From Pseudidiomarina sp. (GTDB lineage Bacteria; Pseudomonadota; Gammaproteobacteria; Enterobacterales; Alteromonadaceae), in the NCBI GenBank assembly GCA_023260975.1, contig JALQTK010000013.1, positions 1 to 37,146 on the forward strand: 37,146 nucleotides of DNA, in the 5' to 3' direction. Shown here in pieces: positions 2,604 to 19,466 of this stretch. A model generated the notes under the pieces. It was not told the origin of the DNA and did no database searches. It worked only from the letters and a program-made list of their open reading frames with translations. The number at the start of each line of letters is the position of its first letter. Positions within the stretch are counted from its first letter, which is position 1. A program made the position numbers and the translations under genes.

Positions 2604-3953
2604 TTACGTCAATGATGTTGTCGGGTTTGCAGCTGGCGCAATGGGCAATTCCACCCGCACCACTAACCCACCCAGCTGCTCGCTTCGGGTAAAACTGACC
2701 CGTCCATGGTGGCGCTCAATAATCCGTTTGACGATCGCTAGGCCTAAGCCTGAACCACGGCTAGCACGGGCGCTATCGCCTTGGCTAAAGGGCTGCAGTA
2801 AGCGTTCTATCTCGCTCGCAGCGATACCCGGGCCATTGTCAGCGACGCTAAACCAAACCCGTTGATCGGCCCGATTATAGCCGCTAACAAGATGGATTTT
2901 ACCGCCGCCATAGCGTTCAGCATTTTCGAGTAAATTAACCAACACCCGCTTAATCGAAATGGCCCGCACCGAGGCCGGTGGAATATCACCATAATCCACG
3001 CTAATAATACTGTGCCAAGAATCAGGTAAGTGCCCAACTACATCTTCAATTAAGTAATTGAGGTTTTCAGCGTCGTTATCAGCGGCGGTATCAAGCCGCA
3101 CATAATCAATAAACTGATCAATGATCGCGTTCATATCGTCAATATCACTGATGATGCCTTCAGCGAGATAATCCTCAGTGGCTGGCATCATTTCAGTGGC
3201 TAAGCGAATGCGCGTCAATGGTGTACGTAGATCATGTGATACCCCAGCCATCAGCAAAGCTCTATCTTGCTCAAGCTGCTGCACCCCTTTTGCCATTTGG
3301 TTAAAGGCTCGGGTAACCGAAATCACCTCGGTTGAACCGCGCTCCGGCAATTGCTCTGGATAATTGCCTTTGGCAATTTGCAGTGCTGCCGCTTGCAGCG
3401 CTTTGAGCGGACGATTTTGCCAATTGGTGAACAGCATGCCGCCGAGTACCGACAGCACGCCAATTAAAATTAGATAGAATAGTAATGGTGAGAAGCGCGC
3501 TTCATCAAAGCTATCGAGATCCATCCGCAACCAATAATCGGGCAGATTATCGGTACGAATCCAGACTTGATAATAAGCGCCTTGGGAGATGCGAACTTCG
3601 CTATCGGCATTCAATAGTTGACTCATTTGTGCCGAGAGAAAATTATAGCCAACGGTCTGGCCCAAGCCCTGCCGCAGCGCTTCGCTTTGGGTAAATACTT
3701 TAATACCGGCAGCAGTACTGTACTTGAACGCTAAATCACGTTTTTCTGCGGCGTTTAAGCGGCTACTGGTGAGCCACTCATCAAGCAACAGCACCCCCTG
3801 TACTTGGCGCGCCACCACCGAACTGATTTGCTGCATGCTTGGTTTAACCACATACAGCCCAACCATTAAGTACGAAATGACTTGGTTAATCAGTAACAAA
3901 AAGGCAATGAGGGCTACGGTGCGAGCGAAGGCCGAGCGCGGCAATATGGGCAT
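2604..3953 (-). CDS. envZ: Osmosensor histidine kinase EnvZ
   Basis: A 449-residue inner-membrane kinase that phosphorylates and dephosphorylates OmpR in response to osmolarity and pH. Domains in order: first membrane helix about 10-35, periplasmic sensor about 36-155, second helix about 156-177, HAMP, then HisKA with phospho-accepting His240 in [12 protein letters not shown]. The HATPase follows, with N-box [11 protein letters not shown]1 DNGPGIA and G2 [10 protein letters not shown]. coli EnvZ uses His243, so length and register agree. The start abuts the ompR stop with no spacer, so the genes are translationally linked. It is the second gene of the ompR-envZ operon. Confidence 0.94.
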
Positions 3954-4679
3954 TTATGGCTTGCTCTCACCGTCAGGAACAAATACGTAGCCTAAACCCC
4001 AAACGGTTTGAATGTAACGCGGATTGGCTGGATCAACCTCGAGCATACGCCGTAATCGTGAAACCTGAACGTCAATGCTACGCTCCAGCGCACTATAGTC
4101 ACGACCACGCGCTTGATTCATTAATTTATCGCGCGACATCGGCTGGCGTGGATGGGTCACTAAGGCTTTGAGTACGGCAAATTCACCACTGGTTAGCGGC
4201 ATCGGCTGGTCGCCCTTAAACATTTCCCGCGTACCGAGATTAAGCCTAAACGCGCCAAAACTAACCGACTCATCGCTACCGGCCGGCGCCCCGGGTAGTT
4301 CTTTACCACGGCGGCGCAATACCGCCCGAATACGCGCCAGCAACTCGCGCGGATTGAATGGTTTAGCTAAGTAATCATCGGCGCCAAGTTCGAGCCCAAT
4401 AATACGGTCAACTTCATCGCCTTTGGCGGTCAGCATGACAATGGGGATAGCGTTATTCTGTTGCCGTAAGCGCCGACAAATCGACAGGCCATCTTCGCCT
4501 GGTAACATCAAATCGAGCACCATGAGGTGAAAGTTTTCGCGCTCTAGCAAACGATCCATCTGTTCACTCTGGGCCGCCGCACGAACATAGAAGCCTTGTT
4601 CTGTAAGATAGCGTTCGAGCAAGCTGCGCAGCCGCGCATCATCATCAATCACTAATACTTTAAAGGTTTCCTGGGACAT
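3954..4679 (-). CDS. ompR: Response regulator OmpR
   Basis: A two-component regulator of porins and envelope genes, partner of EnvZ. The receiver domain has the acidic pocket VIDDD at 10-14, phospho-acceptor Asp56 in MVLDLMLPGEDG, Thr84 and Lys106 (AKPFN). The C-terminal winged helix covers about 135-235 and ends with the family motif TVWGLGYVFVP. The open frame begins upstream at 4754, but the ATG at 4679 (MSQETFKVLVI) gives 241 residues, close to the 239 of E. coli OmpR, and lies downstream of a good promoter. The longer form would contain the promoter, so it is rejected. Confidence 0.95.
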   Translation of the reverse strand: MSQETFKVLVIDDDARLRSLLERYLTEQGFYVRAAAQSEQMDRLLERENFHLMVLDLMLPGEDGLSICRRLRQQNNAIPIVMLTAKGDEVDRIIGLELGADDYLAKPFNPRELLARIRAVLRRRGKELPGAPAGSDESVSFGAFRLNLGTREMFKGDQPMPLTSGEFAVLKALVTHPRQPMSRDKLMNQARGRDYSALERSIDVQVSRLRRMLEVDPANPRYIQTVWGLGYVFVPDGESKP

Positions 4680-4722
4680 TGCCGGCGCTCCGTACATCAA
4701 CTCGATTGAACCTACTGTTGCC

Positions 4723-4750
4723 ACTATAAAAGAAGCAGTACTATTTGCAA
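4723..4750 (-). promoter_or_regulatory. Predicted sigma70 promoter of ompR-envZ
   Basis: On the minus strand, TTGCAA (4745-4750), 16 bases, then TATAGT (4723-4728), placed 44 bases upstream of the chosen ompR start. The -10 matches the consensus at 5 of 6 positions. This is sequence inference only. Confidence 0.55.
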
Positions 4751-4782
4751 ACAACGGCTGGTAACAGTCCGCGATAATTTGT

Positions 4783-8220: not shown

Positions 8221-8253
8221 GTTAAGTTTCAGCTAAGAATTGCAGCGTATTAT
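8221..8253 (+). promoter_or_regulatory. PmrA/QseB-type box and promoter of the PAP2-eptA operon
   Basis: GTTAAG-TTTCA-GCTAAG at 8221-8237 fits the known PmrA box (HTTAAK, 5 bases, HTTAAK) at 10 of 12 half-site positions. After 10 bases comes TATTAT (8248-8253), which matches the -10 consensus at 5 of 6. There is no separate -35 element, as expected for an activator-dependent promoter. The PAP2 ATG is 33 bases further on. Confidence 0.6.
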
Positions 8254-8286
8254 CACGCCACTAAATTGACCAAAAAAGTCGACTAT

Positions 8287-8949
8287 ATGCTGCGCGCGAT
8301 AATTATTTATTTGCTTATTCTGTTAGTAACCTTGGCCACGGATATTCATCTGTGGGTGGCACAACAGTTATTTGATCTGCAGGGCCAGCAATGGCTATTG
8401 CGCGATTATTGGCTAACCGAAGACCTGCTCCATCGTGGTGTGCGTAACATCAATAGTGTCGTTGTAGCACTTCTGTTACTGGCTATTAGCTGGCGACTCG
8501 CGATTGATGGATTGACCGAACTGAATCAACGTCGACTGCGACTTGTGGCGGCCTTGCTGGCCAGTTTTGCCGTGATCAGCTATCTGAAATACGTTCTGCA
8601 GATGGACTGCCCTTGGGATATGCAACTCTATGGGGGTAATAAGCCTTATTATCCGCTGTGGGCAATAAAACCCAATCATATTAGCGGTGGTCGGTGTTTC
8701 CCAGCCGGCCATGCGAGCATCGGCTTTGCCTATATTGCCCTGTACTTTTATTGGCAGCCGCTGCGCCCGGTGGCCGCGAAAATCGCGTTAACTAGCGCAC
8801 TAACCCTTGGAGCTTTGCTTGGTTTTGTTCAGCAACTTCGTGGTGCCCACTTTTTCATTGATGATCTAACTACCGCAGTAATCTGCGCCATCGTTTCCTG
8901 GCTGATTTTTCGAGAACCTGATTATGCACATAACAAAAATAACCTTTAA
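8287..8949 (+). CDS. PAP2-family membrane phosphatase, EptA-linked
   Basis: A 220-residue membrane protein with about five to six helices and the three PAP2 motifs in altered form: Lys101-x6-Cys108-Pro109 (CPW in place of RP), PAGH at 139-142, and Gln182-x5-His188-x3-Asp192 with an Arg at 185. Relatives dephosphorylate lipid A, undecaprenyl pyrophosphate or phosphatidylglycerophosphate on the periplasmic face. Position in front of eptA suggests lipid A or a linked lipid, but the substrate is not shown. The ATG at 8287 is preferred over an upstream TTG at 8266. The 3' end overlaps eptA by 26 bases, so the two are cotranscribed under the PmrA-type box. GGRCFPAGHASIGF is typical of this subgroup. 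Confidence 0.84.
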   Translation: MLRAIIIYLLILLVTLATDIHLWVAQQLFDLQGQQWLLRDYWLTEDLLHRGVRNINSVVVALLLLAISWRLAIDGLTELNQRRLRLVAALLASFAVISYLKYVLQMDCPWDMQLYGGNKPYYPLWAIKPNHISGGRCFPAGHASIGFAYIALYFYWQPLRPVAAKIALTSALTLGALLGFVQQLRGAHFFIDDLTTAVICAIVSWLIFREPDYAHNKNNL

Positions 8950-10564
8950 GCCCTGGCAAATGGTATTGGTTTTATCCGCCTGGCTAACCTTTGTTTATAA
9001 TGGAGCGCTGCTCTATAGCCTGCCACAGCGTTATCAACTGACTCACATCAATGCTGTCATCGCCATAACCGTTGTGCTGTTTTTGCTCAACGGCTTGCTC
9101 GCCGCTGCATTGATATGGCCAAGAATTTGGCGATTGAGCGCGATCATAATCATCGCCCTATCAGCACTGAGTTTTTACTTTACCCAGCAATATGGTGTCT
9201 ATATTGATAGCGATATGCTAATTAACGTGCTGGAAACTGACTGGTCAGAGAGCTCAGCTCTCGTTACCCCGGCACTGCTTATCAGCCTGGCTGTGTTTGC
9301 TATTTTGCCGAGTGTATTGTTGTATTTTATTCAAATTGAATGGCCTCAACGTCATCGCCATTTGGTTTTGCAGCAGTTATTGCTGGTGTGCGGCTTACTG
9401 ATCGGCTTAGCGACGACAGCAGCTATCTGGTATCAACCATTATCATCGCTGGTTCGGAATCATCGCGAGCTGAAACACCAGGTTATTCCGCTAAACTGGA
9501 TAAGCGCCAGCGTCAGCCTGGTAAAGTCAAAAGCCCATTTACCAGCTGCGTATGCCGACCTTACCGCAGATGCCAGAAAAACCGATGTGCAGCCAGGTGA
9601 CCATCATCGCGTGATGGTTTTAATCATAGGCGAAACAGCACGTGCCGACCACTTTTCCATCAATGGCTATGACCGTAATACCACACCGCGACTACAGCAG
9701 TTGGTTGCTGACGGCTCCGTCATTAACTTTGGTGCAGTGGCTGCCTGCGGTACTGCCACAGCGATCTCACTGCCGTGTTTACTCAGCTATCAAAACCGTG
9801 ACCAATTCGATGCCACCACGGCGAGGAATTCATCGAGTCTTCTGGATGTAGCCCAAGCCGCTGGTTATCACGTGGTGTGGATCGACAATAATTCTGGCTG
9901 CAAAGATATGTGCAATCGCGTTACAACAATTGATCTTAGCCATGCTGATACTGATCCGCTCTGTGCCGAACGCGATTATTGCAATGATCGGATCCTAACG
10001 CGTGCCCTCCAGCAGCAACTACAAAGCATCAATCAAGACACCCTCATAGTGCTGCATATGATTGGTAGCCATGGTCCAGCCTACTACCAGCGTTCGCTGC
10101 TAACGGATAAGCTATTTCAGTCTGAATGCAGCAGTAATAGCTTTGACCAATGCAGTACCGAACAGATTGTGAATAGCTACGATAATTCCTTACGAAGCAC
10201 TGATGCGGTGATTGCCGAAAGTATCGCATTACTATCGCAAAGCAATCTAGAAACAACTTTGCTGTACGTGTCTGATCATGGTGAATCGCTCGGTGAATAC
10301 GGTACCTTTCTGCACGGCATGCCCTACTGGCTGGCACCGGCAGCCCAGCGCGAAGTGCCGATGCTGTTATGGTTGTCAAACAGCTACCAAGAAAATCAGC
10401 AGATTAACCGCAGTTGTCTGACTTCTGCAGCCACTACAGCGGTAAGTCATGATAATATTTTTCATAGTGTGTTAGGTTTATTAGAGGTGACAAGCCCGCT
10501 TTACCGCGCTAGCTTAGACCTCACTCATGGCTGTGGACAGTTTGATGCGCATACTACTGGTTGA
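8924..10564 (+). CDS. eptA: Phosphoethanolamine transferase EptA
   Basis: A 546-residue inner-membrane enzyme that moves phosphoethanolamine from phosphatidylethanolamine to lipid A, lowering negative charge and polymyxin binding. Five N-terminal helices span about 10-195; the periplasmic alkaline-phosphatase-fold domain follows. Zinc-site and catalytic signatures: GETARADHFS (Glu237), CGTATAISLPC at 275-285 containing the nucleophilic threonine, SHGPAYYQR, and SDHGESLGE with a later FLHG. The many cysteines in the soluble domain fit the disulfides of EptA/MCR enzymes. It overlaps the PAP2 gene upstream and the response regulator gene downstream. It is the chromosomal type by context: no mobile element is near and base use resembles its neighbours. 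Confidence 0.93.
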   Translation: MHITKITFKPWQMVLVLSAWLTFVYNGALLYSLPQRYQLTHINAVIAITVVLFLLNGLLAAALIWPRIWRLSAIIIIALSALSFYFTQQYGVYIDSDMLINVLETDWSESSALVTPALLISLAVFAILPSVLLYFIQIEWPQRHRHLVLQQLLLVCGLLIGLATTAAIWYQPLSSLVRNHRELKHQVIPLNWISASVSLVKSKAHLPAAYADLTADARKTDVQPGDHHRVMVLIIGETARADHFSINGYDRNTTPRLQQLVADGSVINFGAVAACGTATAISLPCLLSYQNRDQFDATTARNSSSLLDVAQAAGYHVVWIDNNSGCKDMCNRVTTIDLSHADTDPLCAERDYCNDRILTRALQQQLQSINQDTLIVLHMIGSHGPAYYQRSLLTDKLFQSECSSNSFDQCSTEQIVNSYDNSLRSTDAVIAESIALLSQSNLETTLLYVSDHGESLGEYGTFLHGMPYWLAPAAQREVPMLLWLSNSYQENQQINRSCLTSAATTAVSHDNIFHSVLGLLEVTSPLYRASLDLTHGCGQFDAHTTG

Positions 10565-11225
10565 AGATGATGAATTAATTGCCGCCGGAATTATCAGCGG
10601 GCTAACGCAGCATGGCTACCATGTCGACCATTGTGTGACGGGTAAACAGGCTGAGGCAGCGCTACGCAGTGATCAGTTTCAACTGCTTATTTTCGATCTT
10701 GGTTTACCCGATGGTTTGGCAATTCCAGTTATTCAACGACTTAAGCAACAGGGCTTGTCAGCACCCATATTAGTGCTCACTGCGTGGGACCAAATTGACC
10801 GCAAAGTCGCTGCACTCGATGCTGGTGCTGATGACTACATGGTTAAACCGTTTGATTTACGTGAATTAGAAGCACGTATTCGGGTGTTAGTGAGGCGCCA
10901 ACAAGCGCGCACTGATGATGTTCTGAATTATGCCGGCGTCAGTATGGACTTAGCCCAACAGAGTGTCAGCTACCAGGGGCAAGCGTTGGTGCTGACACGG
11001 CGCGAATGGCTGCTACTCAAAGAGTTCTTGCTCAACCCGAAACGGATTTTGAGTCGCGAACGTCTCGAATCAGTCTGTTATGGCTGGGATGGCGATATCG
11101 AGAGTAATACCATCGAGGTACACATTCATCATCTGCGCAAAAAGACCACTAAAGATTTGATTCGCAACGTTCGTGGTATGGGCTATATGCTCGCTGCCGA
11201 GAGCGAGGTCGATGATGCAAATTAA
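10545..11225 (+). CDS. PmrA/QseB-type response regulator
   Basis: A 226-residue OmpR-class regulator. The receiver domain starts MRILLVEDDEL, with phospho-acceptor Asp51 (FDLGLPDG), the same number as enterobacterial PmrA, and Lys in VKPFDLRELEAR. The DNA-binding winged helix ends VRGMGYMLA. The ATG at 10545 is preferred to the one at 10527 because it gives the canonical N-terminus; either way the gene overlaps eptA, so translation is coupled. The kinase gene follows, overlapping by 11 bases. Expected targets are the two PmrA-type boxes in this window, including the one before its own operon. PmrA and QseB are hard to separate by sequence, so no symbol is given. Confidence 0.88.
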   Translation: MRILLVEDDELIAAGIISGLTQHGYHVDHCVTGKQAEAALRSDQFQLLIFDLGLPDGLAIPVIQRLKQQGLSAPILVLTAWDQIDRKVAALDAGADDYMVKPFDLRELEARIRVLVRRQQARTDDVLNYAGVSMDLAQQSVSYQGQALVLTRREWLLLKEFLLNPKRILSRERLESVCYGWDGDIESNTIEVHIHHLRKKTTKDLIRNVRGMGYMLAAESEVDDAN

Positions 11226-12618
11226 ATCCATACGCTCGGCGTTATTAATTGGCGTCAATAGCATCGTTATTACCATTTTGGCGCTGACCGCATGGGCCAG
11301 CTATCGAAATACACTACATGAGCTGAATGAACTATTTGATGCGGAGCTGGCACAAACGGCGCGGTTACTGAAAAGTCTCACCCATGATCATGGCTTTTTA
11401 AGTAACGACGAAGAACTCACTGTGATTGAAATCCCAGCGTTTATTAATGATGAAAATTTCGCCACCGATAAAGACGGCTATCGCTCGCTCGACGGTCATA
11501 AATATGAGACCAAACTGGGTTTTCAGGTGTGGCGTGACAAGACCCTGATACTGGCGTCGGAAAATGCCCTCGGCCAAGCGCTATCGCAATTCGCACCAGG
11601 CTATCATCAGCACCAACGCGAGCAACAAACCTGGATTAGCTTTAGTCACTTTGATCAGAGCACTGGGCTATGGATTTTCACCGCACAACGCGATGATGTT
11701 CGCTCTGAACTAAGCGGATACTTAGCACTTGAGCAGTTAATCGCATTGCTGATGACCTGGGTACCTATTTCCATAGCAATTCTATGGCTGGTTAATCGCG
11801 TGTTACTGCCGGTGCGCAGCTATGCGGCATCACTCGGTGACCGAAATGCCGACCAACTGCAGCAAATCAACAGCCAATTACCACAAGAAATCGAACCTAT
11901 TCGACTTGCCGTCAATGCCTTATTCCATCGTATTTCTGAACAAATTGAACGGGAACGGCGCTTTATTAATGATGCTGCCCACGAGCTACGCACACCATTA
12001 GCCGCCCTGCAATTGCATGCCAGCCAACTACCCGATCGTCAGCATGCTAGCAGCAAAGCAGTGCAAAAAGCATCGCAACGGATGAATCATTTAGTCGACC
12101 AATTATTTATTCTCGCCAAAGCAGATAATCCCCGATTGGCACTCGGTGCGCCGCAGTCGGTCAATGTCAATGAGCTGATTGAGCAGAGTATTGCCGAGTT
12201 GCCGGTTGATGCGCTAGAAAAAACCCAATGGCAGGTCACTATCCCCGAACATATGCGCATTCAAGGCTACCCCACCTTACTCGGCGCGGCACTGCGTAAT
12301 TTGATTGAAAATGCCATTAAATATAGCGGTGATAAGCCCGAGGTAAGTATCTCAGTTGACGATTATCAGAGCAGCATAGCGATTATAGTCACCGATCAGG
12401 GTCCAGGCGTCGATGCTGAGCAATTACGCCATTTGGGCGAGCGTTTTTACCGTGCTGAACAGCACCGCCAGTATGGTGATGGTGCCGGCTTAGGGCTGTC
12501 AATCGCCGCGCGGGTTGCGGCTCTTCATGGCGGCCAGCTACAGTTTAGCTTGCGCCAACCACATGGTTTATCGGCTATTTTAACGATCGCAAAAACCGGC
12601 TACTATAACGGCAATTAA
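11215..12618 (+). CDS. PmrB/QseC-type sensor histidine kinase
   Basis: A 467-residue membrane kinase paired with the preceding regulator. Helix 1 spans about 8-29. The periplasmic part about 30-170 looks like the 2CSK_N sensor (ELFDAELAQTARLLKSL, then GFQVWRDKTLILASEN), typical of QseC and PmrB. Helix 2 is about 172-196, followed by HAMP. HisKA has His256 in NDAAHELRTPLAALQ; the ATPase has LRNLIENAIKYS, DQGPGV and GAGLGLSIA. The sensor holds acidic patches (NDEEL, NDENFATDKD) that could bind metal, though this is inference. The ATG at 11215 is chosen for the GAGG 6 bases upstream. Its stop codon lies inside the PmrA-type box of the next gene. Confidence 0.87.
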   Translation: MQIKSIRSALLIGVNSIVITILALTAWASYRNTLHELNELFDAELAQTARLLKSLTHDHGFLSNDEELTVIEIPAFINDENFATDKDGYRSLDGHKYETKLGFQVWRDKTLILASENALGQALSQFAPGYHQHQREQQTWISFSHFDQSTGLWIFTAQRDDVRSELSGYLALEQLIALLMTWVPISIAILWLVNRVLLPVRSYAASLGDRNADQLQQINSQLPQEIEPIRLAVNALFHRISEQIERERRFINDAAHELRTPLAALQLHASQLPDRQHASSKAVQKASQRMNHLVDQLFILAKADNPRLALGAPQSVNVNELIEQSIAELPVDALEKTQWQVTIPEHMRIQGYPTLLGAALRNLIENAIKYSGDKPEVSISVDDYQSSIAIIVTDQGPGVDAEQLRHLGERFYRAEQHRQYGDGAGLGLSIAARVAALHGGQLQFSLRQPHGLSAILTIAKTGYYNGN

Positions 12619-12646
12619 GTTTGCCTTAAGTTTTACTCGGCATGAT
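12614..12646 (+). promoter_or_regulatory. PmrA/QseB-type box and promoter of the LTA-synthase-like gene
   Basis: ATTAAG-TTTGC-CTTAAG at 12614-12630 matches the PmrA consensus (HTTAAK, 5 bases, HTTAAK) at every position and overlaps the stop codon of the kinase gene. After 10 bases comes CATGAT (12641-12646), 4 of 6 to the -10 consensus. The geometry is the same as at 8221-8253. Confidence 0.65.
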
Positions 12647-12676: not shown

Positions 12677-14641
12677 ATGACCGCCATTAGCAAAGCATTT
12701 GCCCCCTATCGTCCGCTGCTGACCATACTCCTGGTTGGCCTAGTAATCCTTAGCCTTAGCCGAGCTGGACTGTTTTGGCTCTACAGCGATCGCGTTACTG
12801 CCGCCGGGTGGTGGCCATTTTTGCTACTGCAAGGCCTACGCGCTGACCTGATTATGCTCGGCTATTGGAATCTGATAGCGCTATTGGTATTGCCAATTTT
12901 TTTACTCTTCAACGCAGTACGGGCGTGGCAGCGCGTAGCCCGTGTTTGGCTGATTTTAGTATTGACCATAGTCATCGCCATGGAATTAATGACGCCGGCC
13001 TTTATCGCTCAATATGATGTTCGCCCGAATCGCTTATTTATTGAGTATCTGGCTTACCCAAAAGAGGTGATAAGCACGCTCTGGAATGGCTTTCGGGGCT
13101 GGCTGCTGATCAGTGTTATCGGCATTGCAGGTACACTCACTGCATTGCTTAAATTAGCCCGCAGCACCAACGCTAACTTTGCTTCGCGGCGCGGCGCGTT
13201 GTGGTTATGGCCATTGCTAGTGTTGCTGACACTGGTCAGTATTCGCTCGACCTTCGATCACCGTCCTGCTAACCCAGCATTATTTGCTATTACTGCCGAT
13301 CCGCTGGTCAACTCGTTGCTGCTTAGTTCCACCTATTCAGTGCAATTTGCCCTCTACAATCTGCGGCATGAGGCCAAGGCAAGTAGTATTTACGGCAACT
13401 TATCTGACCAACAACTGACTGAATTTGTGCAGCAATTGCCGTATTTCGCTAGCACCCAATTCATTGACCCCGCGCTACCCACCTTGCACTGGCAGCCCGC
13501 CAGTCGCCAGCGTGACCAACCGCTCAATATTGTCATCATCGTGCAGGAAAGTTTGGGCTACGGCTTCGTTGAACGTGGCTTAGCGCCTAACCTGCTCGCC
13601 TTGCGTGACCAGGGCTGGTGGTTCGAACAAATGTATGCCACCGGAACCCGTTCAGTGCGTGGTCTTGAGGCAGTCTTTTCTGGCTTTCCGCCATCTCCGG
13701 CACGCAGTGTGGTGAAATTATCCGGATCCCAACAAGGCTTCTACAGTATTGCTCAAACACTCAAGCAAAACGGCTATTTCACCGAATTTGTTTATGGTGG
13801 TGAAGCGCATTTTGACAATATGCGGAGTTTTTTTACCGGTAACGGGGTGCAATCAATTATTGACCAAAATAGCTTTGATGAACCGCAATTTGTTAGTAGC
13901 TGGGGCGTCAGTGACGAAGACTTATTTGCCATGGCCCATCAACGCCTGACCGATTTACAGCAACGCCAACAGCCGTTGTTCAGTTTAATTTTTACCTCGT
14001 CGAATCATGAGCCATTTGAACTACCCGAAGGTAAACTAGATAACCTGACATTACCGCTGCAATCGGTCGATAATGCGGTACGGTACGCAGATTTTGCCCT
14101 CGGTAAATTTCTACAACAAGCACGCCAAAGCGACTATTGGCATAACACCTTATTTCTCATTGTGGCCGACCACGACAATCGTGTTTATGGCGATCAAATC
14201 GTTCCCATCGACAAATTCCATATCCCCGCGGTAATTATTGGTGCCGATATCCAACCGCAGTTAATGCCGGCGGTCGCTAGTCAAATTGATTTGGCTCCAA
14301 CGCTGCTGTCGTTGGCTGGAGTGTCGGCAGCGCTACCAACCATTGGTCAAGATCTGAGTGCACCTGGAGCGATTCCAGCGAATCGGGCGTTATTGCAGTT
14401 TAATCAAACATTTGCGCTACTCGAAGGCGACCAAGTCACGGTCTTACAAGCCGAGCAGCCAGCACTCAGTGGGCGCTACGATTTTGACGCCGGTCGACTG
14501 ACTCTCAGCAATGACTCGGAGCAAACGGCGGTGGGGCTTGCCAACGCGCTGCCTTATGCGTTGTTAGGAAATTGGCTGTATCGGCAGAAATTATATCGAT
14601 TGCCAAGCGTAAATGAATCCGCAGCACCAATAAAGCATTGA
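12677..14641 (+). CDS. LTA synthase family membrane sulfatase-fold transferase
   Basis: A 654-residue protein with about five N-terminal membrane helices (to about 190) and a periplasmic sulfatase/alkaline-phosphatase-fold domain. Metal and catalytic residues are visible: Glu291 (VQESLGYG), Thr324 in ATGTRSVRGLEA as probable nucleophile, and Asp498-His499 (VADHDNR). The family includes lipoteichoic acid synthase and OpgB, which transfer phosphoglycerol from phosphatidylglycerol. In a Gram-negative the acceptor would be a periplasmic or surface glycan or lipid A; the exact donor and acceptor are unknown. The perfect PmrA-type box in front ties it to the eptA operon. It could equally transfer phosphoethanolamine. 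Confidence 0.82.
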   Translation: MTAISKAFAPYRPLLTILLVGLVILSLSRAGLFWLYSDRVTAAGWWPFLLLQGLRADLIMLGYWNLIALLVLPIFLLFNAVRAWQRVARVWLILVLTIVIAMELMTPAFIAQYDVRPNRLFIEYLAYPKEVISTLWNGFRGWLLISVIGIAGTLTALLKLARSTNANFASRRGALWLWPLLVLLTLVSIRSTFDHRPANPALFAITADPLVNSLLLSSTYSVQFALYNLRHEAKASSIYGNLSDQQLTEFVQQLPYFASTQFIDPALPTLHWQPASRQRDQPLNIVIIVQESLGYGFVERGLAPNLLALRDQGWWFEQMYATGTRSVRGLEAVFSGFPPSPARSVVKLSGSQQGFYSIAQTLKQNGYFTEFVYGGEAHFDNMRSFFTGNGVQSIIDQNSFDEPQFVSSWGVSDEDLFAMAHQRLTDLQQRQQPLFSLIFTSSNHEPFELPEGKLDNLTLPLQSVDNAVRYADFALGKFLQQARQSDYWHNTLFLIVADHDNRVYGDQIVPIDKFHIPAVIIGADIQPQLMPAVASQIDLAPTLLSLAGVSAALPTIGQDLSAPGAIPANRALLQFNQTFALLEGDQVTVLQAEQPALSGRYDFDAGRLTLSNDSEQTAVGLANALPYALLGNWLYRQKLYRLPSVNESAAPIKH

Positions 14642-15243: not shown

Positions 15244-17574
15244 ATGCAGATCGCCCAATTACCCATACCGCAACAAATTGCCCATGAATTAGCCGTCAAC
15301 CCACAGCAAGTGCAAGCTGCAATTACCCTGCTTGATGATGGTGCCACCGTACCCTTTATTGCGCGCTATCGAAAAGAAGCAACCGGTGGGCTAGATGATA
15401 CCCAGCTACGTAATCTTGCCAGCAGGTTGACCTATTTACGTGAGCTCCATGACCGCCGTCAGGTGATCTTGGCTAGTATTCGCGAACAGGGCAAACTCAC
15501 CCAAGCGCTGGAACAAGCGATTCAAACCAGCGCATCAAAGACTGAATTAGAAGATTTATATCTACCGTTCAAACCCAAGCGCCGTACCAAAGGACAAATT
15601 GCTATTGAAGCAGGGTTGGAACCACTGGCATTAAGCCTGCTGGAAAATCCTCAACAGCAGCCAGAGCAATTAGCCGCCAGTTATCTCAACAGCGAAGCTG
15701 GTTTTGCCGACAGTCGCAGCGTGCTCGAAGGCGCCCGTTTTATTTTAATGGAACGTTTCGCTGAAGATGCCGCACTGTTGAAAAAAGTCCGAGATTATTT
15801 GTGGAATAATGCCGAAATAACCAGTGTTGTTAGCCCCGGTAAAGAAACTGAAGGGGCTAAGTTCCGTGATTATTTTTGCTTCAACGAGGCACTTAAAAAG
15901 ATCCCATCACACCGTGCGCTAGCGTTATTCCGCGGACGTAATGAGGGTATCTTGCAGCTCAAACTCAATGCAGACCCACAGCAACAAGATAGCACTGCGC
16001 GTAGTTATGGTGAGCAGTTGATTGCCAGCCATGTGGGCATTGAGGATCGCGGTCGAGCGGCAGATAGCTGGTTGCAACAAACCGTGCAATGGACCTGGAA
16101 AGTTAAAATTCTACTGCATATGGAAACTGAGCTGTTCGGTACTGTGCGCGAACGCGCCGAAACCGATGCGATTCAGGTGTTCGCCAATAATCTCAACGAT
16201 TTGTTAATGGCCGCGCCGGCTGGCAATAAAGTCACTATGGGTTTAGACCCTGGAGTTCGCACCGGGGTCAAAGTGGCGGTAGTCGATAACACCGGTAAAG
16301 TGCTAGCAACCAACACGGTGTTTCCATTTCAGCCACAAAATCAAGTGGACAAGTCGATGCGCACACTGGCCACCTTGTGTAAGCAATACAAAGTGGAGCT
16401 GATTAGTATTGGTAACGGCACCCACTCACGCGAAACTGATAAATTAGTCGCTGATATGCTGAAGGCCAACAGCGATATTCGCGCCAGCAAAATTATTGTC
16501 AATGAAGCCGGCGCATCGGTCTATTCAGCCTCTGAATTAGCAGCCCAGGAATTCCCAGACTTAGATGTCTCGCTGCGCGGTGCGGTATCGATTGCACGAC
16601 GCTTGCAAGACCCGCTGGCCGAGCTGGTGAAAATTGAGCCGAAATCTATTGGTGTCGGCCAATACCAGCATGATGTGGGCCAAGCACAACTAGCCAGCAG
16701 CCTTGATGCGGTGGTCGAAGATTGTGTAAATGCCGTGGGTGTTGACTTGAATACCGCCTCCGTTGCCCTACTCGCGCGGGTCGCCGGTATGAGCAAAACC
16801 ATGGCACAAAATATCGTCGCCCAGCGTGACCTGCAGGGTCGCTTTGAGCGCCGTGAGCAACTGTTAAAAGTGCCGCGATTAGGGCCTAAAGCGTTTGAAC
16901 AAGCGGCCGGATTTTTGCGCATCATGAACGGTAGTGAGCCATTGGATAGCTCCGCCGTGCATCCCGAAGCCTACCCGGTGGTGCAGCGTATTGCAGCGCA
17001 TTTAGGCAAACCGGTAGCCAGCTTAATTGGTGATAGCGCGGCATTAAAAACAGTTGATGCGAAAGCTTTCGTTGATGACACCTTTGGCTTGCCAACCATT
17101 GAAGATATTTTACGCGAGCTGGACAAGCCGGGGCGTGATCCGCGTCCTGAATTTAAAACCGCTAACTTTAAAGATGGCGTTGACCATATCAACGACCTCA
17201 AGGTTGGTATGACCCTAGAGGGGGTGGTGACCAATGTCGCCGCATTTGGCGCCTTCGTCGATATTGGCGTGCATCAAGATGGCTTAGTCCATGTCTCAGT
17301 GCTGGCGGATAAGTTCGTTAGCGACCCACGCGAGATCGTCAAAACCGGCGATATCGTCAAAGTGAAAATACTTGAGGTCGACGCAGCGCGTAAACGTATT
17401 AGTCTGACCATGCGCTTAAACGACGAGGTGACTGCTGCACCGGCGGCTAAACCACTGGGCAGCAAAAGCGCGAATCCTCCAGCGCCGCGCGCGGCCAGTA
17501 AAGCAGCGCCCGCAGCAGTCGGCTCAGCAATGGGTTCAGCCTTCGCCGATGCCTTTGCTAAGCTAAAGAAATAG
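15244..17574 (+). CDS. tex: Tex family RNA-binding protein (YhgF)
   Basis: A 776-residue Tex protein (E. coli YhgF is 773). Domains in order: N-terminal helical region from residue 1, YqgF-like RNase H fold about 325-460 ([18 protein letters not shown]), helix-hairpin-helix region about 490-560 ([31 protein letters not shown]), and a C-terminal S1 RNA-binding domain about 650-722 ([20 protein letters not shown]). A low-complexity Ala/Pro/Lys tail ends the protein. Tex affects transcription and RNA turnover. The best ribosome site, AAGGA, is 16 bases before the ATG and thus poorly spaced. The last 17 bases overlap the convergent desaturase gene. Confidence 0.93.
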
Positions 17575-18682
17575 TCATGAAATAGCGCTTTTGCGCGCTC
17601 ACGGCGCGGCGTAAATAGGCTACCTGTTGCTGTAACTCAGCAACAGTTGGCCAATGTAGTTGGTCTTTCATTGCTTGCGTACGCGCCTCAAATAACTTTT
17701 TGCGGAGTTGGTAGTACTCGCGCAAACGCTCTATTAAGGCATCATATTCAGCTTGAATACGTGCCATGCTATCGCTGCAGCGACCACCAATGGTTTGCTG
17801 AGCGCGCTGCAAGGCCATGGCCAGTCGCGCTCGTTCAATTTGATAAGGATTAGTGCGCTTCAAATTGCGCGTTAAACCCAGCCATGAACACGCCTTAATC
17901 AGCCACTTAGTCGGGTCAAACTGCCACCAGCGAATACCATTACGATAATCGGCTGAGAAAATATGATGGTAGTTATGATAACCCTCACCAAATGTGAGTA
18001 ACGCCAATACGCCATTATCGCGAGCCGAATTTCGGTCAGTATAGGTTTGCTTACCCCAAATGTGCGCTAGCGAATTAATAAAGAAGGTGGTGTGATGATT
18101 GATCACTAAGCGGGCAAAACCAACTAATAATAGGCCACCAATAATGTCACCCAGCAGCCAACCAATCAGCAGCGGCCAGCCAATTGCGGTTAGCAGCGTT
18201 AGGGTTAAATAATGCCGATGTTGCCACATAACAATCGGGTCGTTCTGTAGGTCTTTGACATTGTTGTAATCGTGATAACGATTGGCCTGATACTCACGCA
18301 ACATCCAACCAATATGTGAATACCAAAAGCCGCGACTGGCTGAATACGGGTCATGCTCGTGGTGGTCGACATGCTTATGGTGCTCACGGTGATCAGACGA
18401 CCAATGTAATGCGCTATTCTGCACCGCCAAGGCACCGCCGAGGGCAAATAAAATCCGTAATGACCAATGCGCGTCGTAGGTTTTGTGTGCCCATAAACGG
18501 TGATAACCAGCAGTGATTGAAATACCGGCAAAAATAATCGTGCCAAGCATCGCCAACCACAGCCCGCTGGTTAGCCCATGACTATAGGCGTACCACGGCA
18601 CGCCAATTATGGCGACAGCGAAGGTAATCACGAATAATAGGCTATTTAGCCAAATGACGGGGGGCTTCTCAGGGTGTTTCAT
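17558..18682 (-). CDS. Delta-9-type acyl-CoA desaturase
   Basis: A 374-residue membrane di-iron desaturase that inserts a cis double bond into acyl chains with oxygen. The three histidine boxes are present: HRLWAH at 61-66, [11 protein letters not shown] at 98-108 and HNYHH at 236-240. Helices lie near 10-30, 40-60, 75-93 and 160-195. The C-terminal 100 residues are an extra charged, coiled-coil-like extension ([28 protein letters not shown]). The ATG at 18682 is chosen; upstream in-frame TTG codons are not used. A strong promoter with a FabR-type palindrome just downstream of its -10 precedes the gene, and fabR is divergent, so it is a likely FabR target. The 3' end overlaps tex. Confidence 0.9.
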
Positions 18683-18698
18683 ACAACTCAACTATTTT

Positions 18699-18716
18699 AG
18701 CGAACACGTGTACGCT
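18699..18716. promoter_or_regulatory. FabR-type operator palindrome
   Basis: AGCGAACACGTGTACGCT is an 18-base palindrome with one mismatched pair, very like the FabR sites before fabA and fabB in enterobacteria. It begins 1 base downstream of the desaturase -10 hexamer, covering the expected start of transcription, and lies 130 bases from the fabR start. Confidence 0.8.
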
Positions 18717-18717
18717 C

Positions 18718-18746
18718 AATATACTGCGAATGCGTGTTTACCGCAA
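18718..18746 (-). promoter_or_regulatory. Predicted sigma70 promoter of the desaturase gene
   Basis: On the minus strand: TTGCGG (18741-18746), 17 bases, TATATT (18718-18723). The -10 hexamer is followed after one base by the FabR-type palindrome, a layout that fits repression by steric block. Confidence 0.65.
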
Positions 18747-18845
18747 CGTTCTTTGCCGCCAAATTGCCACAAATAAGCTCTCGCCGTTACTGATTGCACT
18801 TGTGTTAATGGACAGCGATACTAGCGGCTCAACCGAGGACATTTG

Positions 18846-19466
18846 ATGAGCGGAATTCGCGCTAAACAAAAACAAAAAACTCGCCGTTTATTAATTGAGG
18901 CGGCGATGAATCAGCTTTCTGCAGAACACGGCTACGCTAGTTTAAGCTTGCGCGAAGTAGCCCGTGAGGCCGGTATTGCGCCGACTAGCTTTTATCGGCA
19001 CTTTCAGAACATGGAAGAGCTGGGCCTATCGTTGGTGGATGAGGGCGGCTTGGCGCTACGACAACTGCTGCGCCAGTCACGCTTACAGATTGCCCGGGGT
19101 GGTTCGATTATTCGCTCATCAGTGACTACGTTTATGTCCTTTGTCGCCAACCAAACCCCTATTTTCCGCCTCCTGCTGCAAGAAAAATCAGGTAATTCAA
19201 GAGCATTCCGTTTAGCCGTGCAACGCGAGGTAGATCACTTTACCGCTGAGCTGGTCGACTACCTAGTGGCCGAGCAACACTATTCACACGAGCTTGCCGA
19301 ACTGCAAGCAAATGCCATTGTGCGGATTGTTTTTGGCGCCGGTGCCGACGCTATCGATGCTGCTGAAGATGAACGCCAGCGCCTTACCGAGCACACTATT
19401 GCTCAGGTACGCATGGTGGCGCGCGGAGCGGACGCTACCCGGCAATTGGGAAAAACCACAAAATAA
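18846..19466 (+). CDS. fabR: Fatty acid regulator FabR (TetR family)
   Basis: A 206-residue TetR-family repressor. FabR senses the ratio of unsaturated to saturated acyl thioesters and represses unsaturated fatty acid synthesis. The DNA-binding region [20 protein letters not shown] (31-50), then RHF, is nearly identical to E. coli FabR, and [17 protein letters not shown] in the ligand domain also matches. The ATG at 18846 is used (a TTG precedes it), with AGGA 7 bases upstream. The gene diverges from the desaturase gene across the FabR palindrome. A weak promoter TTGCAC-17-GATACT lies before it. The 3' 32 bases overlap the SLC13 permease gene. Confidence 0.93.

What the first reader, a model, noticed from the sequence alone, without database searches (positions are those of the whole stretch)
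8221..12646. Two PmrA-type boxes with the same geometry define a surface-charge regulon
GTTAAG-TTTCA-GCTAAG (8221-8237) and ATTAAG-TTTGC-CTTAAG (12614-12630) both fit the PmrA/QseB half-site pair with a 5-base spacer, and each is followed by exactly 10 bases and then a -10-like hexamer (TATTAT, CATGAT). One lies before PAP2-eptA-regulator-kinase, the other before the LTA-synthase-like gene. The boxes are seen directly. Positive autoregulation of the operon and inclusion of the sulfatase-fold gene in the same regulon are inferred.
Basis: partly seen in the sequence, partly recalled or inferred. Interest (0 to 1): 0.7.

Follow-up and report, generated by a model that had tools for sequence, protein, structure and literature searches.

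The report
PmrA-type regulon with LTA-synthase-like core
Two short DNA switches in this marine bacterium are real and conserved: they mark genes that remodel the cell surface and that the neighbouring two-component regulator very probably controls together, with a little-studied lipoteichoic-acid-synthase-like enzyme as the most constant target rather than the known antibiotic-resistance enzyme EptA.

Summary
Comparison with relatives gives strong support. In the genus (Idiomarina/Pseudidiomarina) a box precedes 23 of 23 LTA-synthase-like (LTAS) genes with upstream sequence and 23 of 24 regulator operons, the 24th cut by a contig end. A stricter pattern gives 48 sites in 26 genomes against 5 for the control; 45 precede LTAS, regulator operon, dgkA or a T_hemolysin cassette. 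The window's genome has three exact sites, before LTAS, dgkA and the cassette; box 1 is a one-mismatch fourth. LTAS and regulator share the same 19 of 26 genomes, eptA only 11: LTAS is the constant target. Outside the genus 22 of 68 LTAS genes have the strict site. Against: three regulator-less genomes keep a dgkA box. Nothing was tested by experiment. Prior art: Vibrio vulnificus CarR controls dgkA-eptA-mdoB through another motif (PMC10433830, passages). New variant of a known kind.

The parts
8221..8237 (+). Box 1, GTTAAG-N5-GCTAAG, before PAP2-eptA-regulator-kinase
   Evidence: same geometry before the regulator operon in G014, G025, G016, G018, G008 and G005 (sequences of all but G018)
8248..8253 (+). 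-10-like hexamer TATTAT, 10 bp after box 1
   Evidence: spacing conserved
8287..8949 (+). PAP2 phosphatase gene (ATG 8287; a TTG at 8266 is also open)
   Evidence: PF01569; below the NCBIfam lipid A phosphatase cut-off
8924..10564 (+). eptA, phosphoethanolamine-lipid A transferase
   Evidence: PF08019 and PF00884; NF028537 over cut-off
10527..11225 (+). PmrA/QseB-type response regulator (the ATG at 10545 is the likelier start, as homology begins at residue 7)
   Evidence: base-contact residues N188, V192 and R210 of Klebsiella PmrA kept
11215..12618 (+). histidine kinase, QseC/PmrB-like; its stop codon 12616-12618 lies inside box 2
   Evidence: searched from 11218
12614..12630 (+). Box 2, ATTAAG-N5-CTTAAG, before the LTAS-like gene
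   Evidence: box before 23 of 23 LTAS genes of the genus with upstream sequence
12641..12646 (+). -10-like hexamer CATGAT, 10 bp after box 2
12677..14641 (+). LTA-synthase-like (sulfatase-fold) inner-membrane transferase, VP1736 family

Best explanation
The regulator at 10527-11225 is a PmrA/QseB-type response regulator. As a phosphorylated dimer it binds head to tail to two TTAAG half-sites 11 bp apart. The box ends 10 bp before the -10, so it covers the -35 position and replaces a poor -35 by recruiting RNA polymerase: activation at a fixed distance. In this genome it controls its own operon (PAP2-eptA-regulator-kinase), the LTAS-like gene next door, an unlinked dgkA, and an unlinked cassette (T_hemolysin-AMP ligase-haem-oxygenase-like-SDR). 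Shown: the sites, their geometry, conservation and genome-wide scarcity. Inferred: binding, activation, the signal, and the common purpose. The likely purpose is envelope remodelling by transferases that take head groups from phospholipids and release diacylglycerol (EptA; by analogy the LTAS-like enzyme), with DgkA recycling the diacylglycerol.
For: Box before 23 of 23 LTAS genes with upstream sequence in the genus, 22 of 23 with YANNNT exactly 10 bp on, in at least five different gene neighbourhoods. Box before 23 of 24 regulator operons; the 24th is cut by a contig end. Strict pattern: 48 sites in 26 genomes, reversed control 5; 45 of the 48 lie just before LTAS (20), T_hemolysin (12), dgkA (8), the regulator (4) or PAP2 of the operon (1) (the four regulator genes are labelled there by the window's second regulator as query, identity of the genes). 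Own genome: 3 of 3 exact strict sites precede regulon genes, and the two one-mismatch matches unrelated to the regulon lie inside long open frames. Outside Idiomarina/Pseudidiomarina, 22 of 68 named LTAS loci have the strict site upstream; over all 80 it is 32, reversed windows 0, shuffled mean 0.0. Among 37 distinct boxes chosen without regard to the -10, YANNNT stands at 10 bp in 27 and at no other distance from 4 to 21 bp in more than 3; outside the genus 19 of 28. Box goes with a nearby regulator (27 of 32 against 8 of 48) and with dgkA within 1.2 kb (19 of 32 against 1 of 48) (rows related, not corrected for descent). Regulator and LTAS gene are present in the same 19 of 26 genomes, with at least 5 changes on a Tex tree, 3 forced by well-supported branches. 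In G014 most of PAP2 is deleted but box and -10 remain before its remnant and eptA. Only one regulator of this type was found in the window genome (86.6% complete); its next best is 32% identical.
Against: Regulator-less genomes G002, G003 and G004 keep an exact half-site pair before dgkA, G006 a damaged one, G007 none, so another regulator may use it, or it is a leftover. The joint-presence test is weak after phylogenetic correction: 3 independent pairs, sign test p 0.25. Box 1 alone is not rare: it is one of four one-mismatch matches in the genome. Outside the genus many regulators of 39-47% identity have no box within 7.5 kb upstream: 5 of 12 order relatives and 11 of 25 in the named loci outside Idiomarina/Pseudidiomarina, some of these cut by locus ends; in L088 and L165 the site counted is about 3 kb away with no known gene between. 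46 of 68 LTAS loci outside the genus lack the strict site, Massilia/Duganella among them although some have a regulator nearby. 38 strict sites lie elsewhere in the 80 loci, many of them the opposite strand of the LTAS box or at regulator and cassette positions, but I did not assign each. The window regulator has His where Klebsiella PmrA has base-contacting Asn196, but so do relatives with perfect boxes. Two groups of regulator, by identity to the window (about 50-88% and 40-47%), share one box type, so which one acts where both occur is open. No binding or expression data.
Confidence: 0.85

Rival explanations
1. The boxes are real but are bound by another OmpR/PhoB-family regulator of the genome, the adjacent system being a passenger.
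For: dgkA keeps a box in three genomes without a PmrA-type regulator. Two groups of regulator, alike only to about 40-47%, share one box type.
Against: Strict sites occur in 19 of 19 genomes with the regulator and 0 of 7 without (with the last -10 base relaxed, 3 of 7). Boxes precede regulator operons in 23 of 24 cases. The regulator is nearest to PmrA among NCBIfam models and solved structures and keeps its main DNA contacts.
Confidence: 0.1
2. The boxes act as repressor sites, or as both: binding over the -35 position blocks polymerase, so the operon is negatively autoregulated.
For: The box overlaps the -35 position at a 17-bp spacing (sequence); no transcript data decide the sign.
Against: The 10-bp distance is fixed (27 of 37), as expected for activation at a fixed face of the helix; a repressor site tolerates more drift. 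No good -35 hexamer is seen by eye under the boxes. In Klebsiella pbgP the -35 element lies at half-site 1 and PmrA activates (PMC4660055, passages).
Confidence: 0.08
3. Chance resemblance: AT-rich hexamers near promoters.
For: HTTAAK-N5-HTTAAK matches are no commoner than the control; box 1 is degenerate and stands among one-mismatch matches that lie inside genes.
Against: Conservation, spacing and site scarcity.
Confidence: 0.02

Closest known systems
PmrAB regulon of Salmonella/Klebsiella (PmrA box: CTTAAG and NTTAAT half-sites, 5-bp spacer; Klebsiella pbgP CTTAAT and CCTAAG; PMC3973317, abstract and passages)
   Same: Half-site, 5-bp spacer, direct repeat, eptA among targets, regulator family, main base contacts
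   Different: Targets: an LTAS-like gene, dgkA and a T_hemolysin cassette. No arn operon was noticed in the stretches read, but the genome was not searched for one. Kinase scores slightly higher against QseC than PmrB.
CarRS regulon of Vibrio vulnificus (PMC10433830, passages)
   Same: A two-component system activates dgkA, eptA and a phosphoglycerol-transferase (mdoB) gene plus itself; dgkA and mdoB are needed for full polymyxin B resistance
   Different: One dgkA-eptA-mdoB operon; motif GACAN6TACA, not TTAAG repeats. Whether that MdoB is of the VP1736 family was not checked.
QseBC / DbfRS (VC1638-VC1639) of enterics and Vibrio cholerae (PMC5636140, PMC6370654, PMC12714742, passages)
   Same: OmpR-family regulator with a histidine kinase, tied to envelope and polymyxin stress
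   Different: Target named there is sipA/vca0732; dgkA and eptA do not occur in the main text of PMC12714742, and LTAS-like targets are not named in the passages I saw
mcr-1-pap2 and mcr-3-dgkA pairs (PMC7559476, abstract)
   Same: PAP2 or DgkA coupled to a phosphoethanolamine transferase
   Different: Mobile pairs; no shared regulator box is described in the abstract
LtaS/LtaP, OpgB, YejM and PDB 3LXQ (VP1736)
   Same: Fold and the metal/nucleophile positions
   Different: Far below the cut-offs of all five NCBIfam models it matches; best is phosphoglycerol transferase I, 76.3 of 572 bits; substrate unknown

Membership tests
PmrA regulon / PmrA box | Two TTAA-core half-sites in direct repeat, 5-bp spacer | tested here: met
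   box 2 fully, box 1 with GCTAAG (Klebsiella verified CCTAAG, PMC3973317)
PmrA regulon / PmrA box | Fixed place relative to the -10 | tested here: met
   27 of 37 distinct boxes with YANNNT at exactly 10 bp
PmrA regulon / PmrA box | Bound by the regulator, transcript changes with it | not testable with these tools
   needs footprint and deletion strain
PmrA (NCBIfam NF007928 equivalog) | Score over the curated cut-off | tested here: not met
   229.7 against 330 bits, though the best NCBIfam match: a relative, not filed as PmrA
PmrA | Base-contact residues T187, N188, V192, H195, N196, R210 (PMC4660055, passages) | tested here: inconclusive
   N188, V192, H195, R210 kept; T187 is Ser and N196 is His in the window
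QseB (NF007663) / QseC (NF007664) / PmrB (NF008025) | Score over the curated cut-off | tested here: not met
   189.2 of 345; 193.6 of 475; 184.5 of 314
Phosphoethanolamine-lipid A transferase (NF028537) | Score over the curated cut-off | tested here: met
   522.5 against 500; the stricter EptA equivalog PRK11598 is not met (469.9 of 660)
LtaS / OpgB / YejM | NCBIfam score over the curated cut-off | tested here: not met
   55 of 970, 44.2 of 574, 23.7 of 825
LTAS superfamily (sulfatase-fold transferase) | Fold and catalytic positions | tested here: met
   3LXQ 45% identity, TMt 0.91; E291, T322, D498, H499 invariant in 15 and aligned with LtaS-type chains; their catalytic roles in LtaS are recalled

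The most novel reading that the evidence does not exclude
The VP1736-type LTAS-like enzyme with DgkA, not eptA, is the ancestral core output of PmrA-type systems in marine Gammaproteobacteria (and possibly some Betaproteobacteria, where only near-matches of the box were seen). Together with the T_hemolysin-AMP-ligase-haem-oxygenase-SDR cassette it makes an undescribed envelope lipid modification, eptA being a later, dispensable addition. The window regulon is one case of this.
Probability: 0.35. Interest if true: 0.72.

Novelty: new variant of a known kind. Interest (0 to 1): 0.52.

Why it matters
It gives an uncharacterised, widespread enzyme family (solved as 3LXQ, still named 'uncharacterized protein VP1736' in the structure bank) and an uncharacterised gene cassette a regulatory context: co-control with a phosphoethanolamine transferase and a diacylglycerol kinase. 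That makes a testable guess about their chemistry (phospholipid head-group transfer with diacylglycerol release) and about envelope-stress defence in marine bacteria. It also gives a site pattern strict enough to predict members of this regulon in unannotated genomes.

Tried and rejected
My first result that regulator-less genomes have no sites (0 of 7) did not survive relaxing the last -10 base: G002, G003 and G004 carry a dgkA box. Sign test on the Tex tree: too few independent changes to reach 0.05. The downstream-gene listing read minus-strand sites in the wrong orientation, and the upstream scan of L031-L060 assumed wrongly that those loci were turned to the match; neither is used in any count (L061 onward, read with strand, and one search were used instead). 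The kinase was searched from 11218, one codon after the ATG at 11215. The 18 matrix promoters were hand-picked. No tree of the regulators was built; the two groups named are by identity only. Papers: no paper on LTAS-like genes with PmrA boxes, on a T_hemolysin/AMP-ligase cassette under such a regulator, or on Idiomarina with PmrA was seen among the listed results (open-licence library only; listings are capped and most hits were not opened). The CarRS paper, listed, is the nearest prior work. The structure model of the LTAS-like protein (mean pLDDT 83) added little beyond 3LXQ.
Full report
What is there. The sequence confirms both boxes, spacers and -10-like hexamers at the stated places. Gene products are PAP2, EptA-type transferase, OmpR/PhoB-type regulator, histidine kinase, and an LTAS-like sulfatase-fold protein, followed by greB and tex. 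The window is contig 44 of a 1.9-Mb, 186-contig genome, 86.6% complete.

Is it more than chance? With the form seen in relatives (NTTAAG-N6-TTAAG-N10-YANNNT) the own genome has three exact matches (C44:12615, C88:24815, C153:3589) and four with one mismatch, box 1 among them. Of the other three, one is the opposite strand of the C153 site and two lie inside long open frames with no regulon gene behind them. Across the genus 48 sites stand against 5 in the reversed control. 45 of the 48 lie just before LTAS (20), T_hemolysin (12), dgkA (8), the regulator (4) or PAP2 of the operon (1); the three left are G015:C1:1624068, G019:C7:42033 (no known gene) and G001:C45:2264 (greB). A matrix built without the window's genome ranks box 2 and box 1 first and second in the window by a wide gap.

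Conservation through rearrangement. LTAS stands downstream of the kinase (window, G014), behind greB (G016, G018, G008, G005), divergent from dgkA-PAP2-eptA-regulator-kinase (G009, G010, G013, G015, G017, G023, G024), convergent with a regulator-kinase pair at the end of the T_hemolysin cassette (for example G012, G019, G017), or apart from the system (G025). A box of at least 11 of 12 half-site letters lies upstream of 23 of 23 such genes with upstream sequence, and 22 of 23 have YANNNT exactly 10 bp on (the exception is G005, AATAGT). One more LTAS gene (G001) is cut by a contig end. In the divergent cases the near-palindromic box could serve both sides: on the dgkA side it reads CTTAAG-CTGAA-CTTAAT, 10 bp, TACTAT in G010. 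In G014 an internal deletion left only the tail of PAP2, yet box and -10 remain just upstream, now before eptA.

Autoregulation. For 24 regulators in the genus, 23 have a box (at most one mismatch, -10 included) upstream on the same strand, the known genes between being on that strand too; the 24th starts at a contig end. Beyond the genus the picture is mixed: 7 of 12 order relatives and 14 of 25 regulators in the named loci outside Idiomarina/Pseudidiomarina have one within 7.5 kb (11 of 11 inside it); 5 and 11 have none, some cut by locus ends, and two of those counted (L088, L165) are doubtful, about 3 kb off with no known gene between.

The regulon. Units in the window's genome: the operon, LTAS, dgkA (C153) and the cassette (C88, running off the contig end). 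The cassette's proteins in G014 are T_hemolysin PF12261, AMP-binding, Haem_oxygenas_2, SDR and a protein with weak TPR matches; the C153 gene is DAGK_prokar. Genus tally: regulator (41% identity or more) and LTAS in the same 19 of 26 genomes, T_hemolysin in 13, all with the regulator, eptA in 11, all with the regulator, dgkA in 24. Eight regulator-bearing genomes lack eptA, one of them only 77% complete. So LTAS is the constant partner. All 13 T_hemolysin genes have a box with at most one mismatch. Of 25 dgkA genes in regulator-bearing genomes 24 have one, G025 not; several of these are the opposite strand of an LTAS box.

Result against. dgkA in G002, G003 and G004, which have no PmrA-type regulator or LTAS, keeps an exact half-site pair with TATTAC at 10 bp; G006 has a damaged one, G007 none. 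On the Tex tree G003, G004 and G006 form one clade and, with G002, sit beside regulator-bearing G005, G008, G016 and G018, so leftovers of a recent loss are possible, but another regulator cannot be excluded. Joint presence of regulator and LTAS gives only 3 independent pairs, p 0.25.

Wider test. Of 80 named LTAS loci, 32 have the strict site between 330 bp upstream and 30 bp inside the match start, reversed windows 0, shuffles 0.0 on average. Twelve of the 80 are Idiomarina/Pseudidiomarina (10 with the site); of the other 68, 22 have it: Arsukibacterium, Rheinheimera, Alishewanella, Cellvibrio, Methylophaga, Pseudohongiella, LSUCC0112 and two unnamed MAGs. 38 further strict sites lie elsewhere in these loci, 0.005 expected per 360-bp window at that rate. 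Of 37 distinct boxes picked without looking at the -10, 27 have YANNNT at 10 bp, other distances 0 to 3; outside the genus 19 of 28. dgkA lies within 1.2 kb in 19 of 32 with the box and 1 of 48 without; a regulator within 9 kb in 27 of 32 and 8 of 48; these rows are related, so the Fisher values are not corrected for descent. Of four plasmid-collection records read, Pseudoalteromonas xiamenensis has boxes before dgkA-LTAS and before eptA, Photobacterium a one-mismatch site about 170 bp before dgkA, Methylophaga pinxianii and Aeromonas caviae none.

Proteins. The regulator is nearest to BasR/PmrA among solved structures and keeps N188, V192 and R210, as do all 44 regulators aligned; residue 196 is Asn, His, Lys or Ser among them with no visible change of box. 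The LTAS-like protein matches 3LXQ (VP1736; 45% identity) and LtaS-type chains; its substrate is unknown.

Mechanism. Two regulator protomers on tandem half-sites over the -35 position contact polymerase; in Klebsiella pbgP the -35 element also lies at half-site 1 (PMC4660055, passages). The shared logic, head-group transfer plus diacylglycerol recycling, is inference from families; V. vulnificus CarR offers an experimental parallel: dgkA and mdoB are needed beside eptA for full polymyxin B resistance (PMC10433830, passages).

Noticed in passing
G000:C88:24815-27989 (L137): T_hemolysin (PF12261)-AMP ligase-haem-oxygenase-like-SDR cassette with an exact box, running off the contig end; in several other genomes it ends in its own regulator-kinase pair. 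Function unknown.
   Followed up: partly
G000:C153:3198-3620 (L139): dgkA with an exact box 10 bp before CATAAT, on another contig than the window.
   Followed up: yes
L245, L247, L251 (G003, G002, G004): dgkA box kept in genomes without a PmrA-type regulator or LTAS gene; unexplained.
   Followed up: partly
L061 3866-3995 (G014): PAP2 is reduced to a C-terminal remnant; box and -10 remain upstream and now face eptA.
   Followed up: yes
window 12614-12618: The kinase stop codon lies inside half-site 1 of box 2, so coding and operator overlap.
   Followed up: no
window 2604-4754: A second two-component pair (HAMP kinase and OmpR-type regulator, minus strand) 3.5 kb before box 1; kept near the system in several relatives.
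   Followed up: no
G015:C1:1624068; G001:C45:2264; G019:C7:42033: Strict sites not before a regulon gene (one is before greB); about the number expected by chance.
   Followed up: partly
G013, G015, G017, G023, G024: Two LTAS genes per genome, both with boxes, in different neighbourhoods.
   Followed up: partly
window 17558-19466: Fatty acid desaturase gene divergent from a TetR-type regulator gene.
   Followed up: no
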